Below, one piece after another: positions 4,671-57,418 of a stretch of 64,000 bases of DNA; position 1 is the first letter of the stretch, and every line of letters begins with the position of its first letter. A program made the translations under genes and the position numbers. The notes beneath the pieces were generated by a model that saw only the letters and a program-made list of their open reading frames with translations, was not told where the DNA came from and did no database searches. Location of the stretch: assembly GCF_002286735.1 (NCBI RefSeq), contig NZ_NRTA01000003.1, forward strand, positions 1 to 64,000. Reading direction: 5' to 3'. This DNA comes from Leptolyngbya sp. BC1307. GTDB lineage: Bacteria > Cyanobacteriota > Cyanobacteriia > Phormidesmidales > Phormidesmidaceae.

Positions 4671-6248
4671 TTATTGAGTTGCCCGGTCTAACGCTGCCAC
4701 CACCTGTTCATAAATCGCTTCAGCTTCGCGGTGCGTATTGCCGATGCAGGTGAGGCCAAGCTTGCCGTGCTCGCTCAGACAGCCCATCAAATGAAACACA
4801 ACGCCAACCCCATCAATGGCGCTAAAGTGCAGCTGCTCACCCATAATGATGTCCATCAGATCGTTAGGCAGTAGCCCTCGATAGGCATCTTTTTGCAAAT
4901 TGTCAGAAGCCCGGTAGTACTTTGCCTGACCATTTTTGGTGTAAAACTTGCCGTCTTCGCAGCTGTAGGCTCCATTGGTCATCAGCTTTAAGGCCATGAA
5001 GGGATGCGTTGTGCCGCCCTTGCGCAGATTGATTTCGATGGCGTGTAGCTGCCAGGGCTCAGCCTGTTGCGGCTGATTTACCGCTATAAAATCGACGCTG
5101 TAGCGCTCTAGTGCGCCTTTTGCCGCCAGGTTTTCGCCGACCTTACGGCCCATCTCCTGAAGCGCCAGCCGGTAGGCATCGTCAGCCGGGAAAGTACAGC
5201 CTAAGAAAATTTGGCCATCGGGGCCGCCCAGTACCTGATCGTGGGTCGAGAGAATTTCGACCTCGCCCTGAGGGGTGACCCGCCCCTGCACGCTGGGAGA
5301 GTACTTTTGCTCTCCTTCGATGAAGGCTTCGGCGATCGCCCCCAATTCCTCAATTTTCAGCTCAAAAGATTCCCAGGTTTCGGTATCACACTGGTAGCGC
5401 AGTTGGGGCATCGCTGCTCTGATGGCCGCCGCCCGCTCCGAATGGTCGGCCTTGCCAGGCGCAACATCAGCTAAGGGCGCTAGCAATAGTAGCGCATTAC
5501 CCTCTCCAGAAAACCCTTCATTCAGCTTAATGACGATCCGCTGCAGCTCGGGTTGCCGCTCCCACAGCGCCGCTGTGACTTCTGCTAACTCTGTTGCACT
5601 GTGAGTCAGCTCACTGCCATCGGGAAGGGGCAACCCGCACTCTGCAAAAATTTGCCGACTGCCGCTCTTCGTACCCCAGTGCAGCAGATCGGGATCAACT
5701 GCCAACAGCGGCAAGTTCAGCGTTAGCGCCAGTTCTTTCTCTAGCTCAGTAGAGTTGTAGCAGGTCATGTAGGCTTCACCGGGCTTAATTCTGTCCCGAA
5801 TGCGCTGAATCAACCGGGGGCGAGCCAAGATCTTTTCTGAGAGCGGTCGCAACGAAGAGTCGTAGGTTGAAAAAAGGTCGAGGCGATCGCGCGCATGAGA
5901 GCTAGGGATACCCGGCAGCAGCTCTAAATAGTAGTCCACAATGCTGGGGTGCAGCGGCTGAGAGGTCACATAGATAATGCGCGTCTCAGGGTTGCGCAGC
6001 CGAATCAGTGAAAACAGCAACCGCTCTTCGTAGTGATGCACGCCTTTAATTTTCATCAGTTCAGACTGAGCCAGGCTGAGAGAAGGCACTACTAAAATCT
6101 GCCGGGGCCGCCGGTCAAACGCATCTATTGACTGCCAGCGATTTGCGAGCTGAGCCTGCAACTGGTGAAATCTTTCAGCCGCGGCTTCAGGCTCTGGCCC
6201 AGTGCCCTGAGTCTGACTCACCGGAAAAATTGCTTCGGCAGTGACCAT
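4671..6248 (-). CDS. ATP-grasp ligase, PGM1-like (peptide ligase-related)
   Basis: 525-aa protein with an ATP-grasp fold resembling the peptide ligase PGM1 of pheganomycin biosynthesis. Visible features are IVIKLNEGFSGEGNALLLL (glycine-rich ATP-binding loop), an EAFIEGEQKYSPSVQG segment, ERYSVDFIAV and HAIEINLRKGGTTHPFMAL; the EINLRKGG stretch should supply magnesium ligands. The N-terminal half (SLIRLRNPETRIIYVTSQPL) is a conserved pre-domain seen with this group. PGM1 joins peptides to an amidino acid, but the substrate of cyanobacterial homologues is unknown. No biosynthetic partner lies next to it. The next gene on the minus strand, sigF, is 220 bp upstream. Confidence 0.75.
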   Translation of the reverse strand: MVTAEAIFPVSQTQGTGPEPEAAAERFHQLQAQLANRWQSIDAFDRRPRQILVVPSLSLAQSELMKIKGVHHYEERLLFSLIRLRNPETRIIYVTSQPLHPSIVDYYLELLPGIPSSHARDRLDLFSTYDSSLRPLSEKILARPRLIQRIRDRIKPGEAYMTCYNSTELEKELALTLNLPLLAVDPDLLHWGTKSGSRQIFAECGLPLPDGSELTHSATELAEVTAALWERQPELQRIVIKLNEGFSGEGNALLLLAPLADVAPGKADHSERAAAIRAAMPQLRYQCDTETWESFELKIEELGAIAEAFIEGEQKYSPSVQGRVTPQGEVEILSTHDQVLGGPDGQIFLGCTFPADDAYRLALQEMGRKVGENLAAKGALERYSVDFIAVNQPQQAEPWQLHAIEINLRKGGTTHPFMALKLMTNGAYSCEDGKFYTKNGQAKYYRASDNLQKDAYRGLLPNDLMDIIMGEQLHFSAIDGVGVVFHLMGCLSEHGKLGLTCIGNTHREAEAIYEQVVAALDRATQ

Positions 6249-6368
6249 AGGGCCTCCTCTGTATCTGTGCGATCGCGCTAACTTCTAAAGCTTAATACGC
6301 GCAGCGGCTGAATCTTTCTCTCTAACGGCTAAATCCACGACCCCAGGCAGAGCCTCGCAACAAAACAT

Positions 6369-6405
6369 AAAAAAAGTCGGCGCGATCCAATTCAACCACG
6401 CCGAC
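6369..6405 (-). terminator. Rho-independent terminator downstream of sigF
   Basis: On the minus strand GTCGGCG pairs with CGCCGAC (plus-strand 6399-6405 and 6376-6382), separated by a 16-base loop and followed at once by seven T residues. It lies 64 bp after the sigF stop. No T-run follows on the plus strand, so the signal is directional. Confidence 0.75.
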
Positions 6406-6468
6406 CTATTCACTTAGGAGAGTTCAATACCTTAGGAATACTTTCACACGGATACTTTGGAATAATAT

Positions 6469-7296
6469 TTAGCAGAGTTCTGTAGAGAGTGTTTCTGATA
6501 GTGACGACAGTTCATCTTGCTCACCCGGCTGAGGTTGCAGATAAACGATCATTTGCTCTACCCCGCGCTGAATGCGGCGAGTCACCGTCATCGGGCTGAC
6601 GCCAATCCGCTCGGCCACTTCCTTACGAGAAAGCCCCTTGAAAAATACAAACTCAATTGCTGAGCGAGTTTTCTCCTCTAGCTGATTCATCGCCCGCTGG
6701 ATCTGCTGACGATCTTCTTCTAGCCCTTGCAGCAGCTGATAGTGCGCGTCCGGCAAGGTATCACCCAAGGTAATGCTCGAATCAATCTGGTGACATACCG
6801 TAGCATCCAGGCTCAGCGGCATCCGGTTTTTATTCGCAAGCTTTACCTGCCGCCATTCCTGCACAGACACTTCTAGCGCTGCTGCCATCTCAATATCAGA
6901 AGGCTGACGACCGTACTCACGAATTAGTTCAGATTGCCGCTTTTGACCTTCCTTTTGCAAGTCTTGCCAGCGACGGGGAATCTTAACGGTAGTGCCGCGA
7001 TCGCGCAAAAAATGCAGCATTTCGCCGCGAATGTAAGGCACTGCAAAAGAGCTAAAAGCACACCCCTGACTCGGGTCAAAACGCTCAATCGAACGGATCA
7101 GCCCAATGTAACCAATCTGCTCAAGATCTTCATACGGCTCAGCGCACTGATGGCTGACCCGATGCGCAATTTTACGAACTAAGCCAGCGTTCAGCCGCAC
7201 CAGTTCATTACGCAGCCGAACCGAACGATCTTGCTTATACTGCATGAGCAATTCCATGCCACGAGAACGAAGCTGTGCCGATTTTGAAGAAACCAT
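6469..7296 (-). CDS. sigF: RNA polymerase sigma factor, SigF/SigB type (group 3)
   Basis: Alternative sigma factor of the SigF/B/G class, which in cyanobacteria directs motility, pilus and stress genes. Region 2 is visible at about residues 40-110 (YEDLEQIGYIGLIRSIERFD, then FSSFAVPYIRGEMLHFLRD), region 3 at about 130-160, and the region 4 helix-turn-helix at about 225-255 (KGLSRKEVAERIGVSPMTVT). The 275-aa length is typical and there is no region 1.1. A terminator follows the gene and a 570-bp divergent intergenic region precedes it. No anti-sigma gene is adjacent. Confidence 0.92.
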   Translation of the reverse strand: MVSSKSAQLRSRGMELLMQYKQDRSVRLRNELVRLNAGLVRKIAHRVSHQCAEPYEDLEQIGYIGLIRSIERFDPSQGCAFSSFAVPYIRGEMLHFLRDRGTTVKIPRRWQDLQKEGQKRQSELIREYGRQPSDIEMAAALEVSVQEWRQVKLANKNRMPLSLDATVCHQIDSSITLGDTLPDAHYQLLQGLEEDRQQIQRAMNQLEEKTRSAIEFVFFKGLSRKEVAERIGVSPMTVTRRIQRGVEQMIVYLQPQPGEQDELSSLSETLSTELC

Positions 7297-7868
7297 AGTA
7301 ACTGCAGGATTTTCTGCGTCGAAGCGGTGCGTGAATTAAACTCATTCTCGGGAAGAGGCCCTTAGCTCACCATCGTTGAAACACGGTAGTCACTCAGGGC
7401 ACCCCACCGATACTTAGGCGGATCCACGCATAGAGACACAAATCAAACACGCACCACACCGCCGGCAAAGTGTCTCGCAGAGCCGTTTCCTGCTGCGCCG
7501 TTCAGTAGATATCCGGAATATGTTTGCCGCTCGGCTAATTTATTTCCCCCACTCAGACCCGGCCTGACATGCCTGAATCGGCCTACTTTCATACGGGGTT
7601 TCTACGTAAATTAACCGCACGCTTTTAGCACCGCTCCATCCCAGAAATCGCAGTAGATCAGAAATCGCAGTAGATTTTTCCCGAAGCGCAAAACGATTCT
7701 CAAAACCGTGAGGTTGAACCAATACGACCCGAGCAATCTGATTGAGTCGATTTGACTAGGTCACCAGCCAATGTCGAAAAGTAGGCGAGAGAACCGTAAT
7801 CGTCAGATGGCAATGAATTCAGTAAACTTTATAAACAGAAACTCTATTCTTTGAGAGCGCTTATCTAT
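7297..7868. other. Divergent intergenic region, no gene recognised
   Basis: About 570 bp separate sigF (minus) from the Bax-inhibitor-like gene (plus) and must hold both promoters; I could not assign boxes with confidence. A 60-codon minus-strand frame at 7540-7722 shows no family resemblance and is probably chance. A perfect 17-bp direct duplication lies at 7642-7675. I recognised no known RNA structure here. Confidence 0.5.
7642..7675. repeat. Tandem duplication, 2 x 17 bp
   Basis: CAGAAATCGCAGTAGAT occurs twice without a gap (7642-7658 and 7659-7675). It is one of several short tandem duplications in the window and lies in the non-coding region between sigF and the gene at 7869. Confidence 0.9.
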
Positions 7869-8597
7869 ATGAGCAACACCAGTAATTTTCGTAAGGCGAT
7901 CAGCGACGCTAAAGGTCAGGCGCTAGTTGGCCCCAATGTGATCGCCAATGCGCTGCCTTTTGTTGGCGGTGGTCTCATCCTCACCGCAGCAGGCACCTTT
8001 GGCGGATTAAATGTGCTGGGGGCCAACCCTAGCCTGTTTATGACCACCTTTTTCGTTGCCTTAGTAGCCGAGATTGCCCTATTTTTCGTGGCCCGTGGCA
8101 TTGCGCTTAAGGGCAACAATGGCGTAGCGCTGCCGTTACTAGCTACCTACAGCTTGCTGTCGGGCTACACGCTGAGCGGTTTGGTCTCGGTGGCTTTGCA
8201 AAGCAGCGGTGTCGGTATTCAGGGAGTTGGGTTTGCGGCCCTCGCCTGCGGTATCACCTTTATCGCCGCGCGTCCGATTGGGTCTAATCTGTCTGAAGAA
8301 GACGGTATGGCGCTGACTAAAACCGTCCAGCTAGGGATCTTAGCCCTGCTGGTTGTGATTGTTGGTCAGTTTGCGCTGAGCTTCTTCGGAGTGTACGCGC
8401 CTAATTTTCTTGAGATTGCAATTTCGGCCATTGGTGTGATTTTGTTTGTCGGCGCGGCGGTGGTAGATTTCTTTGTGCTGCCTCGCACCTATCGCGACGA
8501 CCAGGCGATACCGGCAGCGCTGTCGATGTATCTGACCTATATCAACCTGTTTGTCTTTATTCTCCGACTGTTGATTGCCATTAACGGCAGAGATTAA
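7869..8597 (+). CDS. Bax inhibitor-1 / YccA family membrane protein
   Basis: Hydrophobic protein of about 242 aa with roughly seven predicted membrane segments and a short hydrophilic N-terminus. The overall pattern and the end segment (DDQAIPAALSMYLTYINLFV, then ILRLL) fit the BI-1/YccA/YbhL family, in which conserved acidic residues in the late helices line a pore. The chosen start ATG at 7869 begins MSNTSNFRKAIS; a TTG at 7851 would add six residues. Family members affect membrane protein quality control or calcium leak, and no specific role can be assigned here. prfB follows by 40 bp and may share the transcript. Confidence 0.8.
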   Translation: MSNTSNFRKAISDAKGQALVGPNVIANALPFVGGGLILTAAGTFGGLNVLGANPSLFMTTFFVALVAEIALFFVARGIALKGNNGVALPLLATYSLLSGYTLSGLVSVALQSSGVGIQGVGFAALACGITFIAARPIGSNLSEEDGMALTKTVQLGILALLVVIVGQFALSFFGVYAPNFLEIAISAIGVILFVGAAVVDFFVLPRTYRDDQAIPAALSMYLTYINLFVFILRLLIAINGRD

Positions 8598-11877: not shown

Positions 11878-12660
11878 ATGAAACGGCGACACCTGTTGAA
11901 ATACGCCAGCGCGACGTTTGTCAGCACTCTGGGATTGGGGCTCGTCTCTAGCTATCAGTCTTACCAGGCTCAAAGCAATAGTCAAAGTGGCTCGCTGGCG
12001 ATTACGGCGCTTGGCCACACTGCTTTTTTGTTTGCAGGCGGCGGTCAGCGCATTTTGGTTAATCCGTTTAAGGCGGTTGGCTGCACAGCTGGCTACAAAG
12101 AGCCTGCGGTCGATGCGGGGCTAGTTTTGCTCAGCAGCCGGCTATTTGACGAAGGCTTTTTAACAGATCGCTATGCCAGTACGCAGGTGATTGACGAACC
12201 GGGCGACTACACCGTCAATGGCCTGGCGGTGCAGGGAATCAGTATGCCGCACGACCGCCTGAACGGGCGGCGCTTTGGCTCCAACGTGGCCTGGGCTTGG
12301 ACTCAGGCTGGTGTCAAGGTGGTGCATCTCGGCGGCGCAGCGGCTCCGATTTCTATCGAAGATAAAATTTTGCTTGGACGCCCGGATGTTTTGCTGGTGC
12401 CGGTAGGTGGTGGGCCTAAAGCTTACACACCAGCAGAAGCCGTAGAAGCGGTGCGATCGCTCAATCCTAAAATTGTGATTCCGACTCACTATCGCACTCA
12501 AGCGGCTAATGCGGAGACTTGCGACATTGTCGGCGTGAGTGAATTCATCGCACTGATGTCAGGCACGCCGGTTACGCAAGGCGACAATTCGCTCACCGTC
12601 AGCGCTAGCGGCCTGCCTAGCAGCGGTATGCGCATCGAAGTTTTAAGCTATGCTTTTTAG
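11878..12660 (+). CDS. MBL-fold metallo-hydrolase-like protein with Tat-type signal
   Basis: 260-aa protein with a metallo-beta-lactamase-like fold of the UlaG/YtnP-like 'Zn-dependent hydrolase' type. The start at ATG 11878 is supported by AAGGAA seven bases upstream and yields a twin-arginine-like signal (MKRRHLLKYASATFV). The mature part shows ALGHTAFLF, LLSSRLFDEG, KVVHLGG, DVLLVPVGG and IPTHYRTQ. The usual HxHxDH motif is replaced by LLSSRLFDE, so the protein may bind metal poorly or differently. It may be exported to the periplasm or thylakoid lumen. The substrate is unknown. Confidence 0.75.
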   Translation: MKRRHLLKYASATFVSTLGLGLVSSYQSYQAQSNSQSGSLAITALGHTAFLFAGGGQRILVNPFKAVGCTAGYKEPAVDAGLVLLSSRLFDEGFLTDRYASTQVIDEPGDYTVNGLAVQGISMPHDRLNGRRFGSNVAWAWTQAGVKVVHLGGAAAPISIEDKILLGRPDVLLVPVGGGPKAYTPAEAVEAVRSLNPKIVIPTHYRTQAANAETCDIVGVSEFIALMSGTPVTQGDNSLTVSASGLPSSGMRIEVLSYAF

Positions 12661-12688
12661 GTTGCAATTTTTAACCGTCTAAAAGTCT

Positions 12689-14017
12689 ATGCAGAGTGAG
12701 TATCGTCAGCGTCGGCAGGCTGTGCTGAAGGCCATTGGTCAGGGCACTGCCATATTTTGTAGTGCGCCGATGGCGGTCATGCACAATGACGTGGACCATC
12801 TATTCCGGCAAGATAGCGACTTTTTCTACCTGACGGGTTTTAATGAGCCTGGCGCTGTAGCGGTACTGACCTCTAGTCATGATGAGCATAAGTTTGTGCT
12901 GTTTGTGCAGCCCAAGGATAAGGAAAAGGAAACCTGGAGCGGCTATCGTACGGGGGTAGAAGCGGCTAAGGAGCGCTACGGAGCCGACGAGGTTTATCCG
13001 ATTGATGAGCTGGATGAAAAGCTGACGCCGTATGTGATGAAGGCGTCCCGGCTGTACTATCATTTTGGCCGCGATCGCGCCTTCAATGACCGGGTCATCA
13101 GCCTGTGGCAGCATCTACTCAGGAAGATGACGAAAAAGGGCGAAGGGCCGGTCGCCATAGAAGACGCTAAGCTGCTGATGCAGCAGTTTCGTCGGGTAAA
13201 AAGTCCGGCTGAACTAGAGAAAATAAGGCAGGCGATCGCCATCACTACAGAAGCTCATAATACCGCCCGAGACATGGTCAGACCGGGTCTCTACGAATAC
13301 GAAATTCAGGCGGTCATCGAGAATATCTTTCGCAGGGAAGGCGCTCTAGGGCCAGCCTATCCGTCGATTGTCGCGGGCGGTAAAAATGCCTGCATTCTGC
13401 ACTACGTAGAGAACAACCAGCCGCTGCAAGATGGCGATCTGCTGCTGATTGACGCTGGCTGCGCCTATGACTATTACAACGCCGATATTACCCGCACGTT
13501 TCCGGTCGGCGATCGCTGCTCCGAAGAACAGCGCATCCTTTACGATCTCGTACTTCAGGCCCAGCTAGCCGCCATCGAACAGGTACAGCCTGGCCTGCCT
13601 TTCAATGCTTTTCATGACGCCGCTACGAAGGTGATTACTGCCGGGCTAGTCGAGCTAGGTCTGCTCAAAGGGGACGTAGACAAACTCATCGAAGAAAAAA
13701 AACACAAAGCTTTCTTTATGCACGGGACGGGTCACTTTTTGGGCCTAGATGTCCACGACGCCGGCATCTTGCGTAACCTCGATAAAACCTGGCAGCCCTT
13801 TGCCCCTGGCAACGTCGTCACCGTAGAACCAGGCATCTATATTTCGCCTAACTATGAGCCAGAAGAGGGCCAGCCGGTGATTGAGGATCGCTGGCACGGC
13901 ATTGGCATTCGGATAGAAGACGACTTGCTTGTCACCGAAACCGGCCATGAAGTGCTAACGTCGGGAGTTCCCAAATCTCTGGACGTATCTACTAAAGCAT
14001 TAGCGGCCAGTCATTAA
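12689..14017 (+). CDS. pepP: Xaa-Pro aminopeptidase (aminopeptidase P)
   Basis: Cytosolic M24B metallopeptidase that removes N-terminal residues preceding proline. The N-terminal creatinase-like domain (residues 1-170) holds HNDVDHLFRQDSDFFYLTG. The catalytic domain carries the five metal ligands in DAGCAYDYYNADITRTFP (two Asp), GTGHFLGLDVHD (His), VTVEPGIY (Glu) and GIRIEDDLLVT (Glu). The 442-aa length is normal. It starts 29 bp after the MBL-fold gene and may be co-transcribed with it. Confidence 0.95.
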   Translation: MQSEYRQRRQAVLKAIGQGTAIFCSAPMAVMHNDVDHLFRQDSDFFYLTGFNEPGAVAVLTSSHDEHKFVLFVQPKDKEKETWSGYRTGVEAAKERYGADEVYPIDELDEKLTPYVMKASRLYYHFGRDRAFNDRVISLWQHLLRKMTKKGEGPVAIEDAKLLMQQFRRVKSPAELEKIRQAIAITTEAHNTARDMVRPGLYEYEIQAVIENIFRREGALGPAYPSIVAGGKNACILHYVENNQPLQDGDLLLIDAGCAYDYYNADITRTFPVGDRCSEEQRILYDLVLQAQLAAIEQVQPGLPFNAFHDAATKVITAGLVELGLLKGDVDKLIEEKKHKAFFMHGTGHFLGLDVHDAGILRNLDKTWQPFAPGNVVTVEPGIYISPNYEPEEGQPVIEDRWHGIGIRIEDDLLVTETGHEVLTSGVPKSLDVSTKALAASH

Positions 14018-14169
14018 TCAAAAGACTTGAAGATCGTATCAAATTTTCTGATGAAACTCATTCTGTTGTGAACAACACAGTAGGATGCAAAAAGTTTATC
14101 AGTCGGTATAGCTTTAGTCGCCCTGCTAAAAGCCAGTCAGCGAGCCATTCGGTATTAAGGAAGCAAATA

Positions 14170-15657
14170 GTGAGATTAAATCGTCTACTGCCCGGACTCT
14201 CTTTGGTGGGAGCCCTTCTCTTAGCGCTGCCCGCCGAAGCGGCCAGGCTACAGTTCTGGCGGTTTGATACTGAAGCGAACCAGCTGACTTTCACCACAGA
14301 TGACCGCATTCAGCCCACTGCCCAGCTGCTCTATAATCCGACTCGTCTCGTTATAGACTTGCCGGGGACTGCGCTGATCACACCCGAAACCCAGACTTTT
14401 GAAGGGGCTATTAAGGAGATACGGACTAGCGAACTGGATACCGGCACGACTCGCCTCGTCGTTGAGTACAATTCAGGCTATACAGTCGATCCTAGCCAGT
14501 TACAGGTTCGCGGCGAAAGCGCGCGGCAGTGGCTTGTGCAGTTGCCTGATGCGCTCTCAGCCAATAGCGACAGCAGCCCGGTCGCCGACACAGCTGAAAG
14601 CAGCGTTACCGGTCAGCTAGCTACAGGGAGCGACACCCGAATTCAGAGGATTTTAGCAACCGCAGACGGGTTCTTTATCAGCACAGATGGTGCAGCGCCT
14701 CAGCTAGAAGTTAGCCGCTCTGAAGAAAATGGGCAGCGCTATATTACCCTGACGTTTGCACAGGCAAGGGCGGCTTTGAGTCTGCGATTGCGCCTCCCAG
14801 TCAATCGCTACAGCGTTACGAACTGGCAAATAGGCCCGGTCTCAGACGATCCAACCAGCGCTCAGGTCACGCTGGCATTGGGGGAAACAAGTCCAGATTG
14901 GGAGATCTCCGCCACCCCAGAGGGCGTAGTGATTTTGCCCAAAGATGTCTCGATCAGCAGCATTCCTGACGAGAGGGAAGAAACGGCTGAACCAGCCCCT
15001 ACAGTCGCCCCCACAGTCACAAGGACACCGCCCACGCCCGTATCGCAGCCCGTACCACAGCCAGCCACCCCACGTCAGCTAGCGCCTGATGAACTGCCAA
15101 CCTTGCCAAACGGTCGGTTTACTGTCGTGATTGACCCCGGACATGGAGGACGCGACCCCGGCGCTGTTGGCATTGGGGGTCTGCAAGAAAAAGTCGTGGT
15201 CAACGACATTGCTCCGCAGGTGGCCGCTATTTTGCGTGAGCAAGGCGCTAATGTCGTCATGACCCGAGACAGCGACTACGAGCTTGATCTGGCCCCTCGC
15301 GTACAGATTGCTGAACGGGCTAACGCGACGGTTTTCGTCAGCATTCACGCTAATGCCATCAGCCTGAGCCGCCCTGAGGTCAACGGTTTAGAGACGTTTT
15401 ACGCATCCGATGCGGGCCAGCGATTTGCCAATACCGTTCACGCTACGGTGCTGAATACGATGGGGATGCGCGATCGCGGGGTGCGCAGCGCGCGCTTTTA
15501 CGTGATTCGCCAAACCTCAATGCCCGCTATCTTGGTCGAGACAGGCTTTGTGACGGGCGCAGAAGATTCGCCTAATCTGGCAGATCCGGAGTGGCGATCG
15601 CGGATGGCTAGAGCGATCGCCCACGGCATTTTGCTACATCTGCAAAACGGTGTATAG
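14170..15657 (+). CDS. amiC: N-acetylmuramoyl-L-alanine amidase with AMIN domain
   Basis: Periplasmic zinc amidase that cleaves the amide linking MurNAc to the stem peptide, used in daughter-cell or septal-junction separation. The GTG start at 14170 is chosen because AAGGAAG lies six bases upstream and it gives a clean signal peptide (MRLNRLLPGLSLVGALLLAL). The ORF extends upstream to GTG 14068. AMIN-type repeats cover about residues 25-260, followed by a Pro/Thr-rich linker near 280-325. The Amidase_3 domain carries VIDPGHGGRDPGAVG (His), LQEKVVVND (Glu), SIHANA (His) and ILVETGFV (Glu). All zinc ligands and the catalytic Glu appear intact. Confidence 0.93.
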   Translation: MRLNRLLPGLSLVGALLLALPAEAARLQFWRFDTEANQLTFTTDDRIQPTAQLLYNPTRLVIDLPGTALITPETQTFEGAIKEIRTSELDTGTTRLVVEYNSGYTVDPSQLQVRGESARQWLVQLPDALSANSDSSPVADTAESSVTGQLATGSDTRIQRILATADGFFISTDGAAPQLEVSRSEENGQRYITLTFAQARAALSLRLRLPVNRYSVTNWQIGPVSDDPTSAQVTLALGETSPDWEISATPEGVVILPKDVSISSIPDEREETAEPAPTVAPTVTRTPPTPVSQPVPQPATPRQLAPDELPTLPNGRFTVVIDPGHGGRDPGAVGIGGLQEKVVVNDIAPQVAAILREQGANVVMTRDSDYELDLAPRVQIAERANATVFVSIHANAISLSRPEVNGLETFYASDAGQRFANTVHATVLNTMGMRDRGVRSARFYVIRQTSMPAILVETGFVTGAEDSPNLADPEWRSRMARAIAHGILLHLQNGV

Positions 15658-15683
15658 AATTGCCTGTCGAGCAAAGCCCACAT

Positions 15684-16775
15684 CTACTTCGTTTCGGGAT
15701 GCTTAACCGCTTCGCAGGAAACACCCAAGTTGCCTAGATAGCGAATCATCTGATGCAGTCGGCCAAAATCTCGCTGGTTAAAATGCAGTGCCAGCCGAGG
15801 CAAATCAGCGGTCTCATCGTCGCGTTCGAGATCAAAGGCACCGACCTCGCGAATTTTGCCCTGCTTGAGAATATCTGCAAACTCTTCATTCAGCCGGTCG
15901 ATGCCGCCGGGAGAGAGCGGTGCTTTAAGTCGCATCACCAGCTGATCGCCGACATATCGACTGGAGTGATACACCCGGTAAAAGCTTTCAATCGACTCTA
16001 GGGCATCGTCGATGCTGTCAGTGAGATGGTAGAGACTCGTATCATCCCGGCTAATCAACCCTTGATCTAGCAGCCGGTTGCGCACATAGTGATCCCAGCT
16101 TTTCCAATAGTCGCCGCCGGGTCGGTCGATCAGGACCACTGGCAGCGGCCCGGCTTTTCCGGTCTGCATCAGCGTCAGGCACTCAAAGCCTTCGTCTTGG
16201 GTGCCAAACCCACCGGGGAACAGAGCGAGCGCATCGCTTTCTTTCAGAAAAAACAGCTTGCGGGTAAAGAAATACTTAAAGTCCACCAGCTTGGCGTCTC
16301 CCGCCATCACCGGATTGGCTCCCTGCTCAAAGGGCAGCCGAATATTCAGGCCAAAGGAGTGATCGCGCCCGGCTCCCTCATTGCCGGCTTGCATAATGCC
16401 AGGGCCAGCGCCAGTCATCACCATGAAGCCTTGCTTCACCACCCGCCGAGCAAATTCAGCCGCCATCTGATATTCCGGCTGGTGAGCGGGCGTTCGGGCC
16501 GAGCCAAAGATCGTGATCTTACGAATGTGACGGTGGGGAAAGAACGACTTAAACCCTTCCTCCATATCTAGCAGCGAATGACTCAAAATCTTCCAATCGA
16601 GTCGTTCCGCTTCCTGCTCAGCCATCCGCACCAGCGTCTCAAAAATCTCCTCAATCAGTTCCCCGTGCTCTGTATGGTGCAGACGGTCTAGCACGCGGAG
16701 AACATTCGCGCGCAGCTGAGTACTAGAGCGATCGCTTGAGCTGCGATCTGAATTTTGAGAAGTGGAAACATCCAT
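15684..16775 (-). CDS. LOG family protein (lysine decarboxylase-like nucleotide fold)
   Basis: TIGR00730-like LOG-family protein, many members of which are cytokinin-activating phosphoribohydrolases that release the base from nucleoside monophosphates. The signature FPGGFGTQDEGFE (about residues 186-198) and the early ITIFGSARTP are intact, as is MTGAGPGIMQAGNEGA. At 363 aa it is longer than the core LOG enzyme of about 200 aa. It has about 90 N-terminal residues and a C-terminal domain of about 90 that I do not recognise. Nucleotide 5'-monophosphate nucleosidase activity is plausible but untested. It converges with amiC. Confidence 0.82.
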   Translation of the reverse strand: MDVSTSQNSDRSSSDRSSTQLRANVLRVLDRLHHTEHGELIEEIFETLVRMAEQEAERLDWKILSHSLLDMEEGFKSFFPHRHIRKITIFGSARTPAHQPEYQMAAEFARRVVKQGFMVMTGAGPGIMQAGNEGAGRDHSFGLNIRLPFEQGANPVMAGDAKLVDFKYFFTRKLFFLKESDALALFPGGFGTQDEGFECLTLMQTGKAGPLPVVLIDRPGGDYWKSWDHYVRNRLLDQGLISRDDTSLYHLTDSIDDALESIESFYRVYHSSRYVGDQLVMRLKAPLSPGGIDRLNEEFADILKQGKIREVGAFDLERDDETADLPRLALHFNQRDFGRLHQMIRYLGNLGVSCEAVKHPETK

Positions 16776-51821: not shown

Positions 51822-54167
51822 ATGGTTGCCACTCCTACTCATGTGACTGATGCGAATACCGCCGACCTGGCTGAAGACAGAGCGCTTCAGCTCCAGCAGA
51901 TAGCGGATAGTCTGCGTCCGGGGCAACGGTCTCTGGCGCAATGGCGATCTGGCCCACTGGCGGTTTCGGCGGTGCCCGGCTCTGGTAAATCTACTGGGAT
52001 GGCGGCGGGCGCAGCGATCGCCATTGCCCACCATCAGCTGCACGCCCGCAAACAGCTCGTTTTAGTGACCTTTACGCGCTCGGCGGCGGCTAATCTTAAA
52101 GCTAAAGTGCGTCAGCATTTGCGATCGCTCTCGCTACCACTCAATAGCTTTGTCGTCCACACCCTGCACGGCCTAGCGCTCAATATTGCCACCCGACATC
52201 CCGAAGTTTCCGGCATTAACCTGTCTCCCTTGGATTCAGAAGGCACAACGCTAGTCTCCCCGACCCAAAACCATCGGCTGATTCGCATGGCGGTGGAACG
52301 CTGGATTGCCGATAATCCCATCGACTATCAGCGGCTAATTGAGGGGCAAAGCTTTGACGGCGAAGAGGCTGAACGACTGCGCCGTCAGTCGGTGCTGCGG
52401 ACAGAAGTGCTACCCGCGCTGGCCGATACCGTCATCCACGAAGCTAAAAGCTCGGGGCTGTTGCCCGATGAGCTAGCTGAGATTGCTCAAACAATGGTGA
52501 TCGGGGTGCCCGAAGGGGCTGCTGATTACGCGGTAGTGGCGATCGCCGCTGGCCTCTACGCCCACTATCAGGCATTGCTGGCTGACCAAGGGCTCATTGA
52601 CTACGACGACATGATCTTAGCCGCGCTCAAAACCTTACAGGAGCCAACCCTGCGTCAGCTCTGGCAGAGCCGAGTATTTGCCATCTTTGAAGACGAGGCG
52701 CAGGACTCTTCGCCGCTACAAACCCGCTTATTGGAAGTGCTCGCCGCTGACCCCGACAATCCTCAGCAGCCGCTAAACCTGGTACGAGTGGGCGATCCGA
52801 ACCAGGCCATCAATTCCACGTTTACTCCGGCTGACCCAGTATTTTTCAATCAGTTTTGCGATCGAGCTCAAGAAATCGGACGGCTGGCCAGCATTGAGCA
52901 GGCAGGCCGGAGCTGCGATCGCATCATGGCGGCAGCTAACTTCACCCTGCACTGGGTCAATCAAAACGCGGCGGTCCAAGCCTTTCGCACTCAAGATATC
53001 CTGCCGGTTGGCGCTGACGATCCGCAGCCAAACGCTAACCCGGAGCCCATTGGGAGCGGTGTAGAATTGGTTCGTCCTAAAAGCACGCTTGAAACCGTCA
53101 AACAGCTTGCTCAAAGAGTGGTAGACGCTTTTGAAGCGGATAAAAATCTCAGCGCAGCGATATTGGTGAGAGAAGCGCGGCAGGGTAAATTCATTCGAGA
53201 AATCTTAGAAGATGCTGACCGGCTCGGATTCGATTTTGAGGCAACTGGGATTGAGATTTATGATGTGGGCGCGCGCGATCGCAAAACCCACATCCCCAGA
53301 GAAATGCTCGATCTGCTGCAGTTCATCGAGCGCCCTCACTCACCCGACAATATCAAAGCCGCGCTGCGCGTACTGGTCTCCCGTCAGCTCATTCCCACCC
53401 AAGACCTCAACCCGCTTGCCACTCATCCCGAGCAGTTTCTCTATCCCGGCCCGCTCGACACTCCGCCTCAAACTCAGCCAGCTCAGCAGGCCCGCCGCTA
53501 CTGCGCCTCTTTGCTCCGAGCCAGGCTAGAACTGCCCGCCTACCATCTCATCCCCTTTTTGGGCCTCACCCTCCGCTACGACCAGAGCGAACTGGCCACT
53601 GCCGATAAGCTCGCCGCCCGCATTGCCCAGCAAACTCTAGAAGACAGTACTCTGACTGCGATGCTGATCGCACTTCAAGAACTGCTGAGCAGCGAACGAT
53701 TCAGCGCCGTCGAAGCCGAAGATACCGAATCTCAGTACGCTCGCCCCGGTCGGCTCACGATCATGACCATGCACAAAGCCAAAGGGCTTGACTGGGATAT
53801 GGTCTATCTGCCCTTTTTGCATAAACGCAGCATTCCTGGCGAAGTCTGGGTGCCGCAGCAAATGCAGTTTCTCGGTGATTTTGCCCTAGATGAAGTCGCC
53901 CGCGCTCAGCTTCGCGCCCACACGCACGCCACCTACGCCCACAGCTACAAACCTGCACCTATCCCCGACATCGAGACTGCCTGGCAGCAGGCCAGCAACC
54001 TCAAAAAAGCTGAAGAGTACCGCCTACTCTACGTCGCCATGACCCGCGCCAAAAAACTGCTGTGGATGTCTGCCGCTCGTCAGGCTCCCTTTGCCTGGAG
54101 TAACCCTGACAACCTGCAAGACGCCGAAGCCAGCCCTGTTTTTACGGCACTAGCTCGCGATCTGTAA
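51822..54167 (+). CDS. UvrD/PcrA-like superfamily 1 DNA helicase
   Basis: 781-aa ATP-dependent helicase of the UvrD/Rep family. Motif I AVPGSGKSTGM (about residue 50), motif Ia-like LVTFTRSAAANLKAKV, motif II FEDEAQDSSPLQ, a glutamine motif-containing start and motifs V/VI (TMHKAKGLDWDMVYLP and RLLYVAMTRAK) are all intact. No extra nuclease domain is seen. The start is MVATPTHVT at ATG 51822. It begins 15 bp after the MFS gene and ends in a 26-bp tail-to-tail overlap with the dcm gene. Its role is most likely general DNA repair or recombination. Confidence 0.9.
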   Translation: MVATPTHVTDANTADLAEDRALQLQQIADSLRPGQRSLAQWRSGPLAVSAVPGSGKSTGMAAGAAIAIAHHQLHARKQLVLVTFTRSAAANLKAKVRQHLRSLSLPLNSFVVHTLHGLALNIATRHPEVSGINLSPLDSEGTTLVSPTQNHRLIRMAVERWIADNPIDYQRLIEGQSFDGEEAERLRRQSVLRTEVLPALADTVIHEAKSSGLLPDELAEIAQTMVIGVPEGAADYAVVAIAAGLYAHYQALLADQGLIDYDDMILAALKTLQEPTLRQLWQSRVFAIFEDEAQDSSPLQTRLLEVLAADPDNPQQPLNLVRVGDPNQAINSTFTPADPVFFNQFCDRAQEIGRLASIEQAGRSCDRIMAAANFTLHWVNQNAAVQAFRTQDILPVGADDPQPNANPEPIGSGVELVRPKSTLETVKQLAQRVVDAFEADKNLSAAILVREARQGKFIREILEDADRLGFDFEATGIEIYDVGARDRKTHIPREMLDLLQFIERPHSPDNIKAALRVLVSRQLIPTQDLNPLATHPEQFLYPGPLDTPPQTQPAQQARRYCASLLRARLELPAYHLIPFLGLTLRYDQSELATADKLAARIAQQTLEDSTLTAMLIALQELLSSERFSAVEAEDTESQYARPGRLTIMTMHKAKGLDWDMVYLPFLHKRSIPGEVWVPQQMQFLGDFALDEVARAQLRAHTHATYAHSYKPAPIPDIETAWQQASNLKKAEEYRLLYVAMTRAKKLLWMSAARQAPFAWSNPDNLQDAEASPVFTALARDL

Positions 54168-55440
54168 GGGTAGGAAACAATTCTGTTTGCTTTCGCTTTC
54201 GCTGGCCACTCTTTCGATTGCGCTTTTTGATCGGGTTTCTGATGCCCCAGTATCTTGAGGCGGATGACATAGTGAGTGAGAGCAAGGCGCGATCGCCCAA
54301 AGCGACTATCTTTGTGGGGCAGATGGGTTTTGTGGGCAGTACTTTGATGAGTTCTTGGGCGATCGCAAATGCCAGCGGCGGCGGCACCGAATTTCCGACC
54401 TGCCTGGCACCATGCCACTTGGTCTCATGGAAGCGAAACCAGTCTGGAAACCCATGCAGACGTGCCATCTCGCGAACAGTCACACAGCGGGCATACCGAT
54501 AGTGAATAGGTCTAGGACTGGTGAACGCGCCTCGCGCAGAATCAGTGCCTGCCCGCAGTGTATTAGAGACGCCATCGGCAGATAGTCTAAAAAATCTTGA
54601 AATTGGCTCTACTGTGCCCGGTTCAGTTTGTTCAAATCGCCTGCGAGAAGTTGTTGTATGTTGGCTGCGACGACTACTCGTCAATAGATTCTGGTTCCAT
54701 CGACGCGGGTAGCCATATTTCCAACTCTCTTTTGTGCTGCACCGCATCAAGGATGAATAGTGTTTGGACAACCCTAAACAGCCAGTGCGAACTTCGTCGC
54801 CGAACATGAGCTGTTCAAATTGCTCCGCATCGGGCAAGTCGCCCAGAGCCTCGGCGCAGGTAACCTGATACTTCAAGGGGATAGGGTATCTAGGCAAAGG
54901 ACTACCGGCTTTAGCGCCCACCAAAAATAACCGTTCCCGGCTTTGCGGCACGCCATAGTCTTTTGCGTTCAACACCTGCCACGGTTGCAAGACAACGTAG
55001 CCTGAATCACTGAGTACTTGAATAATTTCATTTAAGAACTGGCCATGCTTGCCAACGGTCAGTCCCTTTACATTTTCAAACAAAAAATATGAAGGCTGAA
55101 GCTCGCGAACCAGTCGAATATACTCTCGCACTAAAGAGTTTCGCGGGTCATCAAGTGCCCGCTGACCCATTAAAGAAAACCCCTGACAGGGCGCACCGCC
55201 AATGACGACATCAATCCTCGCGCTGGTCAGGCCAGCGGCTGCACAGATATCTTTGCCGCTGACTTCAGAGACCGATCTAGGAATGACCGCGCAGTCTGGA
55301 AAGTTGAATTGATGAGCGCAAGCATGAACAGGATCAACTTCGACGGCAGCGGCAACATCAAAACCGGCCTGCTCAAACCCCAAGCTGAGCCCACCTGCCC
55401 CGGCAAAGAGGTCAACCGCTATAGGTCGCCTGTAGGTCAT
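54142..55440 (-). CDS. dcm: DNA (cytosine-5) methyltransferase
   Basis: 432-aa C5-cytosine methyltransferase. Motif I (DLFAGAGGLSLGFEQAGF), motif IV with the catalytic Cys (GGAPCQGFS, about residues 81-89), motif VI (FENVKGL), motif VIII (QSRERLFLVG) and motif X (QVGNSVPPPLA) are all present, so it should be active. A target-recognition region lies near 200-310. The recognition sequence cannot be read; cyanobacterial M.Ssp6803I methylates CGATCG, the core of HIP1, and is one candidate specificity. It begins 18 bp after the GHKL ATPase gene, in the same operon-like run. There is no restriction endonuclease in the window. Confidence 0.93.
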   Translation of the reverse strand: MTYRRPIAVDLFAGAGGLSLGFEQAGFDVAAAVEVDPVHACAHQFNFPDCAVIPRSVSEVSGKDICAAAGLTSARIDVVIGGAPCQGFSLMGQRALDDPRNSLVREYIRLVRELQPSYFLFENVKGLTVGKHGQFLNEIIQVLSDSGYVVLQPWQVLNAKDYGVPQSRERLFLVGAKAGSPLPRYPIPLKYQVTCAEALGDLPDAEQFEQLMFGDEVRTGCLGLSKHYSSLMRCSTKESWKYGYPRRWNQNLLTSSRRSQHTTTSRRRFEQTEPGTVEPISRFFRLSADGVSNTLRAGTDSARGAFTSPRPIHYRYARCVTVREMARLHGFPDWFRFHETKWHGARQVGNSVPPPLAFAIAQELIKVLPTKPICPTKIVALGDRALLSLTMSSASRYWGIRNPIKKRNRKSGQRKRKQTELFPTLTDRELVP

Positions 55441-55458
55441 AGTCTTGACAGCATGTAA

Positions 55459-56907
55459 TTAGTCTTCCTGAGCTTGATTGAGAATCTCTTCAAAGCAGGC
55501 TTCGCCTACAGTAGAAGCCGGGCAGTCTGGGTCGCCAAACAAGTGTTCAGCAATCAGTCTGACTTCTTCAACTGGTTTATTAAAGCTGATTCTTTTGCGC
55601 TGGGCGATGGGCGGCGGCGAGGGTAGATTGGGAATGTACCTTTGCTCTACGTCTAGCTTTCTAGCGGTGGGCGCAACCGCTTTCCAAATGTTTTTGCTAC
55701 CGCCAGAGACAGGCTCGCTAGTATCCACGGTTTTGACCTGGTCGAACATGGCAGCAGGCGTTGCTGCTTTGGCCTTTTTAGACCTTTGCTTTTCCTCTTT
55801 GGGCATTTGCTTCCATTTGCTGGTGTAGGTGGTAAATACCTTCAGGCCCTCTCTCATACGCTCTTTGACATGCAGATACAGATCAGAAGAAGCGTCAATG
55901 CCGCGTTTGGTTGTGGTAATCGGTAGCTTTCTGGCGTCTGTACTTTTGAAGTGAACAATGCCTGAAATAGAGATGTACTGCGGATGGTATCGGGGCACAC
56001 CCGCTTCGCCCCAGCCGGTTAGCAGCGTCTTGTCGTTAGCGACGACGACCCGGTCATTACAGACACTCGTCCATCCGGCGGTATCTCTTTTTCGGCGCTT
56101 GCCTTCGGCGTTTTCAATTTCTTCGTAGCTGGGCAGCGCCCGATGAAACCCCACCGCCAGCTGAACCTCGACGTTTTCTTCGTAAGCTTCGTAGAGGTAG
56201 GGTGCGACGGCTTCTTTGTCGGTATTTTTCAGCTTTGAGAGGCCCTCCCATTGAAGGACTAGCGGTCTAGGCTTGACCGGTTTATCATTTACAGTGATTT
56301 GAAAGCCTTTGCCAATGATGTAGCTGTACAGCGCTTCTATCTCACCGGCAAGCATGTTTTGAAAAGTCTGGGTTGAGAGCTGCTTGGCCGCTTCGTCTCG
56401 CAGCGCCTGCACCTCTAAAGAAGTGCCGTTTCTACCGAGCGGGCTGTCTATTATCTCTAGCGGCAAATCCCAGGTTTCATCGCTTAGCAGCCAGTCTGGT
56501 TTAATGATGACCCTGAAGGATTCAGCTTCTGTTTGAGAAAAAACTTGAGCAGAGCGCCCCAGCTTAAAGAAGGCTCTCTTCATGCCAATGCCGTAGGTGC
56601 CGATGGTCAAGATATCGTCATCGTCGGTGATTTCTTTGGGCTTGCCCATTCTAAAGGCATAGCGCTGCGCGACATCGAGCGGGATGCCGCCGCAGTTGTC
56701 TTCTATTTTGAAAGACGTTTCGGAAACTTCTATTTTGGCCCAAAAGCCTTCGTAGGGCGTCTCTGAGGGCGCTTGGCCCCTAATTGTACGCTGAATGCCG
56801 TCTATGCAGTTATCGAGCAGGTCGAGAATGGCGTCCTTTAAATCGATATCTCGCGTCAGCATGTCTACGAAAAAATTCTTGGTCGGCGACGCATTAATCG
56901 AATCCAT
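55459..56907 (-). CDS. MORC/MutL-like GHKL ATPase adjacent to the methyltransferase
   Basis: 482 aa from ATG 56907. The N-terminus is a GHKL (HATPase) fold: N-box LLDNCIDG (about residues 33-40), EDNCGGIP (about 66-73) and the ATP-lid GTYGIGMKRAF (about 101-111). A second lobe with DRVVVANDKT and a Lys/Arg stretch TTTKRGID (about 336) resembles the S5-like transducer domain of MutL, Hsp90 and MORC. The C-terminus is low complexity with SPPPIAQRKRISFNK. Prokaryotic MORC-like GHKL ATPases have been linked to restriction-modification systems. It lies between a GNAT gene and dcm, with gaps of 7 and 18 bp. No nuclease domain is visible. Confidence 0.85.
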   Translation of the reverse strand: MDSINASPTKNFFVDMLTRDIDLKDAILDLLDNCIDGIQRTIRGQAPSETPYEGFWAKIEVSETSFKIEDNCGGIPLDVAQRYAFRMGKPKEITDDDDILTIGTYGIGMKRAFFKLGRSAQVFSQTEAESFRVIIKPDWLLSDETWDLPLEIIDSPLGRNGTSLEVQALRDEAAKQLSTQTFQNMLAGEIEALYSYIIGKGFQITVNDKPVKPRPLVLQWEGLSKLKNTDKEAVAPYLYEAYEENVEVQLAVGFHRALPSYEEIENAEGKRRKRDTAGWTSVCNDRVVVANDKTLLTGWGEAGVPRYHPQYISISGIVHFKSTDARKLPITTTKRGIDASSDLYLHVKERMREGLKVFTTYTSKWKQMPKEEKQRSKKAKAATPAAMFDQVKTVDTSEPVSGGSKNIWKAVAPTARKLDVEQRYIPNLPSPPPIAQRKRISFNKPVEEVRLIAEHLFGDPDCPASTVGEACFEEILNQAQED

Positions 56908-56914
56908 GCTCTCT

Positions 56915-57418
56915 CTACCGTTGAGGGTCTGCAATAGCTTTGCTGTAAACTTTATCGCAGCGCTCGGTTTCTACACCACTCATTGGCTGATAGCCGCTCT
57001 TTTCGTAGAGTTTCACGGCTTCGCGTAAGACGGTAGCGGTTTCTACCCAAACTTCTAAAAAGCCTTGAATAGCGGCGGCCTGCTCTAGCTGGGCTAGCAA
57101 AAACCGGCCCAAACCCTGCCCTCGCGCTGCTGGCAGCAGGTACATTTTGCGAATTTCGACGGCGTTTTGCCCGCGTTCGATGGGGTAGTAGCCACCAGTG
57201 CCAACGATCTGACCTGAGTGCTCTACGACCCAAAACTCGCCGCCGGTTTCTAGATAGTATTTTTCGACTTCTACGGCGTCTTGATCGCTACAGCCGCCGC
57301 AGTTGATTTCCCAGCCCAGGCCATATTCAGCTAGTACGGTTTTGATGACGTTGGCAGCAGTAGCGCGATCGCTCCTCACCCAATCTCGAATCAAAAAGTC
57401 CTTAAACTGTACCCGCAT
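56915..57418 (-). CDS. GNAT-family N-acetyltransferase
   Basis: 167-aa acetyl-CoA-dependent acetyltransferase. The acetyl-CoA loop AARGQGLGRFLLAQLE (motif A) and the following strand EVWVETATVLREAVKLYEKSGY (motif B) are clear. The acceptor substrate is unknown. Spacing to the genes on either side (12 and 7 bp) places it within the aroQ-miaE-GNAT-GHKL-dcm run. Confidence 0.88.
   Translation of the reverse strand: MRVQFKDFLIRDWVRSDRATAANVIKTVLAEYGLGWEINCGGCSDQDAVEVEKYYLETGGEFWVVEHSGQIVGTGGYYPIERGQNAVEIRKMYLLPAARGQGLGRFLLAQLEQAAAIQGFLEVWVETATVLREAVKLYEKSGYQPMSGVETERCDKVYSKAIADPQR

What the first reader, a model, noticed from the sequence alone, without database searches (positions are those of the whole stretch)
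54142..56907. MORC/MutL-like GHKL ATPase paired with an orphan cytosine methyltransferase
Seen: a 482-aa GHKL ATPase with intact N-box, DNxGG and lid motifs and an S5-like transducer lobe, 18 bp upstream of an apparently active C5 methyltransferase. Known: prokaryotic MORC/MutL-like GHKL ATPases have been found in predicted restriction-modification operons (Iyer, Abhiman and Aravind described this link to eukaryotic MORC). Inference: the pair may form a nuclease-less or unlinked methylation-dependent DNA sensing system, with the ATPase acting as a clamp that reads or blocks unmethylated DNA. No nuclease gene is in the window, which makes the pair unusual and worth testing.
Basis: partly seen in the sequence, partly recalled or inferred. 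Interest (0 to 1): 0.72.

Follow-up and report, generated by a model that had tools for sequence, protein, structure and literature searches.

The report
MORC-like ATPase beside orphan DNA methyltransferase
A cyanobacterium carries a MORC-like ATPase next to a DNA-cytosine methyltransferase; a sister genome has a restriction enzyme beside the same pair that is missing here, and relatives of the ATPase travel in prophages with methyltransferases, so the pair looks like the remnant of a defence system.

Summary
The two genes are real and intact: a 482-aa GHKL+S5 ATPase (55459-56907, -) and, 18 bp downstream, a 432-aa C5 methyltransferase (54142-55440, -). The predicted ATPase structure matches MORC3 and Hsp90 about equally (VIA Z 21.8 and 21.0). 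The pair is probably not nuclease-less by design. In sister genome G052 the same pair is followed by a gene matching a type II restriction enzyme model (E 1e-127); no relative of it was found in the window's genome, and the methyltransferase frame here runs into the end of the next gene, as expected after a deletion. In G055 and G057 the ATPase stays at the same site with no linked methyltransferase or nuclease and evolves slowly (dN/dS 0.07). Outside this genus, 42 of 42 relative clusters have a Methyltransf_35 gene (PF20553) downstream (one split off by IS66) and 37 of 42 a C5 methyltransferase nearby. In 21 of 63 viral contigs the cassette lies in the P2 portal-replication defence hotspot; 47 of 5,426 E. 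coli genomes carry most of it. The genus lacks Methyltransf_35. Best reading: an eroded restriction-modification locus keeping a MORC-like ATPase from a widespread, apparently undescribed cassette. The "nuclease-less pair" idea is partly supported at family level, not for this locus.

The parts
55459..56907 (-). MORC-like GHKL+S5 ATPase, 482 aa (phrog_20521 family, function unknown)
   Evidence: Pfam HATPase_c_3; PHROG phrog_20521 E 2.3e-166; 33-row alignment; AlphaFold2 model pLDDT 87.5, matches to MORC3 and Hsp90
54142..55440 (-). C5 cytosine DNA methyltransferase, 432 aa, of a type II M family; relatives examined often sit beside a REase
   Evidence: Pfam DNA_methylase; PADLOC MTase_II PDLC03326 E 6.9e-164; relatives with adjacent REase
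54168..54177 (.). probable scar where the restriction enzyme gene was lost: likeness to the end of the G052 methyltransferase stops about 54178, and the helicase stop codon ends at 54167
   Evidence: comparison with G052, where M ends and R starts 17 bp later; positions checked; that it is a deletion scar is inference
51822..54167 (+). convergent UvrD-like helicase, right-hand neighbour of the site; present in 7 of 7 genus genomes, not thought to be part of the system
56915..57418 (-). GNAT acetyltransferase, left-hand neighbour of the site (7 bp upstream of the ATPase)
   Evidence: same neighbour in G052, G055, G057; in G056 helicase and GNAT have only a 92-aa ORF without a match between them

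Best explanation
The locus is the remnant of a three-gene GHKL-M-R operon. M (C5 methyltransferase) and R (type II restriction endonuclease, seen in G052) form an ordinary restriction-modification pair. The GHKL ATPase is a MORC-like accessory that most likely closes as an ATP-dependent dimeric clamp on DNA and helps its partners act on, or silence, unmethylated foreign DNA. In this genome R has been lost: M remains as the only C5 methyltransferase found and presumably still marks the genome, and the ATPase is kept intact. Shown: the gene content in the genus genomes, the absence of R here, the predicted fold, the motifs, and the association of the family with C5 methyltransferases. Inferred: loss rather than gain, that R is an active nuclease, the clamp mechanism, and any defence role.
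For: G052 carries GHKL (12476-13927), M (14049-15389) and a 272-aa gene (15407-16225) on one contig, the third matching PADLOC REase_II PDLC03404 at E 9.8e-128. M and R of these families stand side by side in Paracoccus, E. coli, S. meliloti and cyanobacteria G039 and G041. No R relative in G000. In the window the end of M is replaced by sequence running into the helicase 3' end. PF00145 finds one C5 methyltransferase in G000, this one. GHKL and M-R of these families also meet in prophage L104 (R 57%, M 58%) and, about 6 kb apart, on S. meliloti pSymA. GHKL dN/dS between G055 and G057 is 0.07. The predicted fold matches MORC3 (Z 21.8, rmsd 4.0 A, 302 residues, 20% identity).
Against: The contig of G052 ends 28 bp after R, so R-to-helicase linkage is not seen. 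The direction of change is inferred from few genomes. GHKL persists without M or R at the site in G055 and G057, so it does not depend on their being linked. M is common without GHKL: 68 plasmid records hold M relatives at E up to 1e-50, while only 2 hold relatives of the window GHKL. The family's constant partner is Methyltransf_35, not R: R was seen in 2 of 42 clusters outside the genus. Synonymous sites between window and G052 are near or at saturation (dS 5.17 for GHKL, infinite for M), so selection in the window lineage was not measured. Hsp90 is an equally good structural match. Nothing here shows that the ATPase binds DNA.
Confidence: 0.6

Rival explanations
1. The pair is a working nuclease-less system: M marks self DNA and the MORC-like clamp recognises and silences or blocks unmethylated DNA without cutting.
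For: 37 of 42 clusters outside the genus have a C5 methyltransferase near the ATPase, and the G052-type R was seen in only 2 of 42. 21 of 63 viral contigs have the cassette with relatives of both the P2-type portal and replication genes, a hotspot known for defence genes. Both window genes are intact.
Against: The wider cassette has a further gene, Methyltransf_35, in 42 of 42 clusters, not found in the window genus (0 of 7). A restriction enzyme gene is present in the sister operon. Other nuclease types next to the clusters were only partly checked. Four other cyanobacteria have GHKL-Methyltransf_35 with no linked C5 methyltransferase.
Confidence: 0.2
2. The adjacency is incidental: an M-R pair inserted beside an older stand-alone ATPase with its own role, and M is now an orphan.
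For: GHKL sits alone at this site in G055 and G057 and is under purifying selection there. M-R is found as its own unit on small plasmids.
Against: The same ATPase family lies near C5 methyltransferases of several subfamilies in 37 of 42 clusters, and near the same M family in L104, L108/L109 and S. meliloti. All 4 genus genomes with GHKL also hold an M of this subfamily, linked or not; but so do G054 and, as a fragment, G056, without GHKL.
Confidence: 0.15
3. The ATPase is a chaperone or housekeeping GHKL protein unrelated to DNA.
For: Foldseek ranks Hsp90/TRAP1 first, and VIA Z for Hsc82 (21.0) ties with MORC3 (21.8).
Against: Patchy distribution (4 of 63 genomes in the order, 5 of 386 in the phylum sample), prophage location and methyltransferase neighbours; higher aligned identity to MORC2/3/4 (16-20%) than to Hsp90 proteins (9-14%).
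Confidence: 0.05

Closest known systems
Prokaryotic MORC / paraMORC ATPases in restriction-modification operons (Iyer, Abhiman and Aravind 2008, PMC2292703)
   Same: GHKL+S5 ATPase beside C5 methyltransferases, sometimes with Vsr genes; the published MORC motif GhXhhpXXRhl is met by 32 of 33 rows; patchy distribution
   Different: The window protein itself misses the motif by one residue (Ser at one hydrophobic position); no SFII helicase gene found beside it; the partner Methyltransf_35 is not named in the parts of the paper that I read
HEF_HK / Response_reg_2 pairs with C5 methyltransferases (Bellieny-Rabelo et al. 2021, PMC8011034; abstract and section 8 read)
   Same: A HATPase_c_3 protein with a tightly linked second gene, C5 methyltransferase and often Vsr
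   Different: The window ATPase has no Pfam match to PF19191 at E up to 0.1; the second gene of its family is PF20553, a methyltransferase fold
Type II restriction-modification (PADLOC MTase_II PDLC03326 + REase_II PDLC03404)
   Same: M matches at E 6.9e-164 and the sister genome has a matching R
   Different: R not found in the window's genome; an accessory ATPase is present
Shedu with GHKL domain, VcSduA / paraMORC3 (PMC12137116; passages read)
   Same: GHKL clamp-type ATPase, there linked by experiment to anti-phage activity
   Different: No DUF4263 nuclease domain in the window protein
DISARM
   Same: In Microvirga (L006) the GHKL-Methyltransf_35 pair lies inside a DISARM-like operon with drmD, MmeI-like, drmA, a DUF1998 gene and drmC
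   Different: No DISARM genes seen beside the window pair

Membership tests
MORC (Iyer et al. 2008) | GHKL ATPase domain followed by S5-fold domain | tested here: met
   Pfam HATPase_c_3; AlphaFold2 model and VIA alignment to MORC3 over residues 3-366
MORC (Iyer et al. 2008) | GhXhhpXXRhl motif in the S5 domain | tested here: not met
   Window has GWTSVCNDRVV, one residue off; 32 of 33 rows meet it and 0 of 54 window ORFs of 100 aa or more do, this one included. Hence 'MORC-like', not filed as MORC
MORC | closer to MORC than to Hsp90 or MutL in structure | tested here: inconclusive
   VIA Z 21.8 (MORC3) and 21.0 (Hsc82) are tied; rmsd and identity favour MORC3
[quoted passage not shown]
   The one invariant His, 308, has no Glu four residues before it in any of 33 rows
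paraMORC3 / GHKL-Shedu | C-terminal restriction-fold nuclease (DUF4263) domain | tested here: not met
   No such Pfam match at E up to 0.1
paraMORC1, 4, 5 | distinct C-terminal extensions (unnamed extension, TIR, HxH domain) | tested here: inconclusive
   No Pfam match but HATPase_c_3; the paraMORC1 extension could not be compared
HEF_HK (PF19191) | match to PF19191 | tested here: not met
   No match at E up to 0.1
Type II restriction-modification | methyltransferase of a type II M family | tested here: met
   PADLOC PDLC03326 E 6.9e-164
Type II restriction-modification | cognate restriction endonuclease | tested here: not met
   No relative of the G052 enzyme in G000; present in G052
GHKL-Methyltransf_35 cassette (phrog_20521 / phrog_19983) | ATPase of phrog_20521 | tested here: met
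   E 2.3e-166
GHKL-Methyltransf_35 cassette (phrog_20521 / phrog_19983) | Methyltransf_35 gene directly downstream | tested here: not met
   PF20553 in 0 of 7 genus genomes, where the 14 control genomes did not ring either; the same search finds it in 3 of 3 records known to hold it
Mza (MzaB) | match to PADLOC MzaB | tested here: not met
   Window none; 4 of 33 rows weakly, best E 1e-5

The most novel reading that the evidence does not exclude
GHKL-Methyltransf_35-C5 methyltransferase is an undescribed, often prophage-borne defence or silencing system in which a MORC-like clamp acts on DNA according to its cytosine methylation, without an endonuclease, and the window pair is a reduced version that has dropped Methyltransf_35; it would be a bacterial counterpart of MORC silencing of eukaryotic transposons.
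Probability: 0.22. Interest if true: 0.8.

Novelty: new variant of a known kind. Interest (0 to 1): 0.5.

Why it matters
The link between MORC-like ATPases and bacterial DNA methylation was predicted in 2008 from gene neighbourhoods (PMC2292703). The survey here gives a concrete object to test it: a compact three-gene cassette, in part of its range in a known defence hotspot of P2-like prophages (21 of 63 viral contigs), most of it present in 47 of 5,426 complete E. coli genomes. The window's genus offers a natural series (ATPase + M + R, ATPase + M, ATPase alone, empty site) for asking what the ATPase does without its nuclease.

Tried and rejected
Direct sequence links to solved GHKL proteins: phmmer with the window protein found nothing relevant; a 33-row profile gave only marginal matches (Endoplasmin E 0.19, MORC3 E 0.41). 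The close-relative scan of genome contigs found one locus, LEGE 11477. A viral scan with the methyltransferase gave 21 weak relatives, 26-42% identical, not used for neighbourhood counts. Methyltransf_35 as a hidden nuclease was considered and set aside: its model (pLDDT 92) matches SAM-dependent methyltransferases (1wxw Z 16.1, Trm1 3axs Z 15.1). Its profile found no solved relative by sequence. A Vsr gene in the genus: none in 7 genomes, while controls rang in 5 of 14. The genes near GHKL-Methyltransf_35 in the four cyanobacteria that I scanned (8 proteins) proved ordinary (WD40/kinase, NADH dehydrogenase, PALP and others).

Literature: searches for PF20553 or Methyltransf_35, GHKL with prophage, defense and P2-like, and GHKL with cytosine methyltransferase and phage resistance found 0 papers; 'paraMORC' found 7 and 'prokaryotic/bacterial MORC' or 'MORC-like' 6, none seen to describe this cassette from the listing. 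Supplementary files could not be read, so the 169 systems of Rousset et al. Table S5B were not seen and the cassette may be listed there.

Rows collapsed or left out: 63 viral loci, 3 named records, 4 further cyanobacteria, 3 genus loci and the window (74 in all) were collapsed to 45 clusters at 90% identity; neighbours were tabulated for one representative of each; the 3 genus clusters are kept apart from the count of 42. In L067, a member of one cluster, Methyltransf_35 is split into two ORFs, and the S. meliloti copy lacks its first 60 or so profile positions.
Full report
WHAT IS THERE. The ATPase (55459-56907, -) matches Pfam HATPase_c_3 at E 1.6e-8, over the cut-off, no PADLOC model at E up to 0.1, and PHROG family phrog_20521, of unknown function, at E 2.3e-166. 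The methyltransferase (54142-55440, -) matches Pfam DNA_methylase at E 1.2e-69 and PADLOC MTase_II PDLC03326 at E 6.9e-164. The nearest neighbours are a convergent UvrD-like helicase and a GNAT gene. M and the helicase overlap at their 3' ends by 26 bp.

FOLD AND MOTIFS. An AlphaFold2 model from a 30-row alignment has mean pLDDT 87.5. Foldseek ranks Hsp90/TRAP1 first (E 2.1e-15), with MORC3 at rank 39, E 9.7e-14. VIA-align gives MORC3 5ix2_B Z 21.8, rmsd 4.0 A, 302 residues, 20% identity, and Hsc82 6xld_B Z 21.0, rmsd 5.0 A, 305 residues, 10%; Z values this close are tied. The motif that Iyer et al. use to unite MORC proteins (GhXhhpXXRhl; PMC2292703, abstract and section 3 parts 1 and 2 of 3 read) is met by 32 of 33 rows; the exception is the window protein, one residue off. 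I therefore call it MORC-like. In 33 of 33 rows the N-box has Asp where the catalytic Glu is expected (expectation recalled), so ATP hydrolysis needs testing.

THE GENUS. Of 63 genomes in the order, 4 have the ATPase, all in the window's genus of 7. G052: ATPase (73%), M (73%) and a third gene of 272 aa that matches REase_II PDLC03404 at E 9.8e-128. The G052 contig ends 28 bp after it, so the join to the helicase is not seen. G055 and G057 (G057 is apparently Cf. G056: helicase and GNAT with only a 92-aa ORF between. G053 and G054 have no ATPase, and their contigs end in or just past the helicase. R relatives occur in 7 of 60 genomes of the order (one of them weak, E 2.6e-7), and in the genus only in G052; G000, estimated 99.99% complete, has none. 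The PF00145 search finds exactly one C5 methyltransferase in G000 and one in G055.

LOSS. In G052 M ends and R begins 17 bp later. In the window the likeness to the G052 M stops at about 54178, and after 10 bp the frame enters the end of the helicase gene; in G055 and G057 the ATPase end abuts the helicase end with a different junction. Two different tight junctions fit two separate deletions from an ATPase-M-R layout, though gain of M-R by the window-G052 lineage followed by loss of R is not excluded. The ATPase of G055 and G057, without M or R beside it, has dN/dS 0.07, so it is still selected. Its dS (0.29) is lower than that of GNAT (0.65) and the helicase (1.14) in the same pair of genomes, which hints at recent exchange. 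Window-G052 comparisons are near or at saturation.

M AND R ELSEWHERE. M relatives were found in 68 plasmid records at E up to 1e-50, 55 of them Klebsiella or Salmonella. I examined four: R stands beside M in Paracoccus (with Vsr), E. coli and S. meliloti; a Salmonella plasmid shows no annotated gene there. So M-R also lives without the ATPase. The six R relatives aligned share an E-x-D-E ... Q-A-K pattern, which I read as a PD-(D/E)xK variant (inference).

THE WIDER FAMILY. A viral-contig scan with an alignment of the ATPase alone, blind to its neighbours, gave 63 loci. With 3 named records, 4 more cyanobacteria (5 of 386 phylum genomes had a match, the window's own included), 3 genus loci and the window, 74 loci collapse to 45 clusters at 90% identity; 42 lie outside the genus. 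In 42 of 42 representatives a Methyltransf_35 gene follows: in 41 within 60 bp, usually overlapping, and in S. meliloti behind an IS66 insertion. Of 25 sampled partners 25 match PF20553. A C5 methyltransferase lies in the fetched stretch of 37 of 42, within 1.5 kb in 35. The 5 without are L070 (a contig end) and the 4 cyanobacteria, whose genomes give 5 to 11 C5 matches elsewhere. The G052-type R was seen in 2 of 42 (L104, L007). I tested neighbours by similarity only for that R, Vsr, DISARM and UvrD types, plus a few by Pfam; L105 has a ResIII-domain protein directly downstream of the pair, so 'no nuclease' is not established for every cluster.

Methyltransf_35 was modelled (pLDDT 92) and matches SAM-dependent methyltransferases (1wxw Z 16.1, Trm1 3axs Z 15.1): a methyltransferase fold, substrate unknown. 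It was not found in the 7 genus genomes (where no control genome rang); the same search finds it in 3 of 3 records where it is known.

PROPHAGE SETTING. In L068 the cassette lies between a portal protein and a replication nicking protein, and relatives of both flank genes occur in 21 of 63 viral loci, 8 of 35 viral clusters; the other 42 loci do not show them. In E. coli elppa5 the annotation reads portal, ATP-binding protein, O-methyltransferase, DNA cytosine methyltransferase, replication endonuclease (the last marked incomplete). This is the P2 portal-replication hotspot of defence genes (PMC9122126, passages and section 10 read; PMC9519451, passages read). 254 of 5,426 complete E. coli genomes have some match and 47 have at least 80% of the cassette query. 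In Microvirga the ATPase-Methyltransf_35 pair lies inside a DISARM-like operon. Defence is therefore a reasonable guess for the cassette, not a result.

VERDICT. The window pair is best read as an eroded ATPase-M-R locus whose ATPase belongs to a widespread MORC-like, methyltransferase-linked and often prophage-borne family. The mechanism (clamp on DNA, reading methylation) remains inference.

Noticed in passing
L061-L123, L153 (E. coli elppa5 5001-8516): Conserved cassette ATPase - Methyltransf_35 - C5 methyltransferase in P2-like and other prophage contigs; the first two genes belong to PHROGs of unknown function (phrog_20521, phrog_19983).
   Followed up: partly
L006 9983-12397 (Microvirga terrae plasmid): The ATPase-Methyltransf_35 pair is nested inside a DISARM-like operon between the MmeI-like gene and drmA.
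   Followed up: no
L007 8205-17549 (S. meliloti KH46 pSymA): An IS66 transposase lies between the ATPase and a shortened Methyltransf_35; an M-R pair of the window's family with a Vsr gene lies about 6 kb away.
   Followed up: partly
L043 and L005 (G055, G057): The ATPase has much lower synonymous divergence (0.29) than its neighbours (0.65 and 1.14), hinting at recent exchange of this gene alone.
   Followed up: no
L047 8152-12347 (G029): A methyltransferase of the window's family lies about 0.5 kb from a relative of the same UvrD-like helicase, in another genus and in a different orientation.
   Followed up: no
L044, L045, L046: C5 methyltransferases of the same subfamily in G055, G057 and G054 beside metabolic genes; no R relative found in these genomes. 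The G054 match is reported with one stop inside.
   Followed up: partly
window 55459-56907 and 33-row alignment: Asp in place of the usual catalytic Glu of the N-box in 33 of 33 rows.
   Followed up: partly
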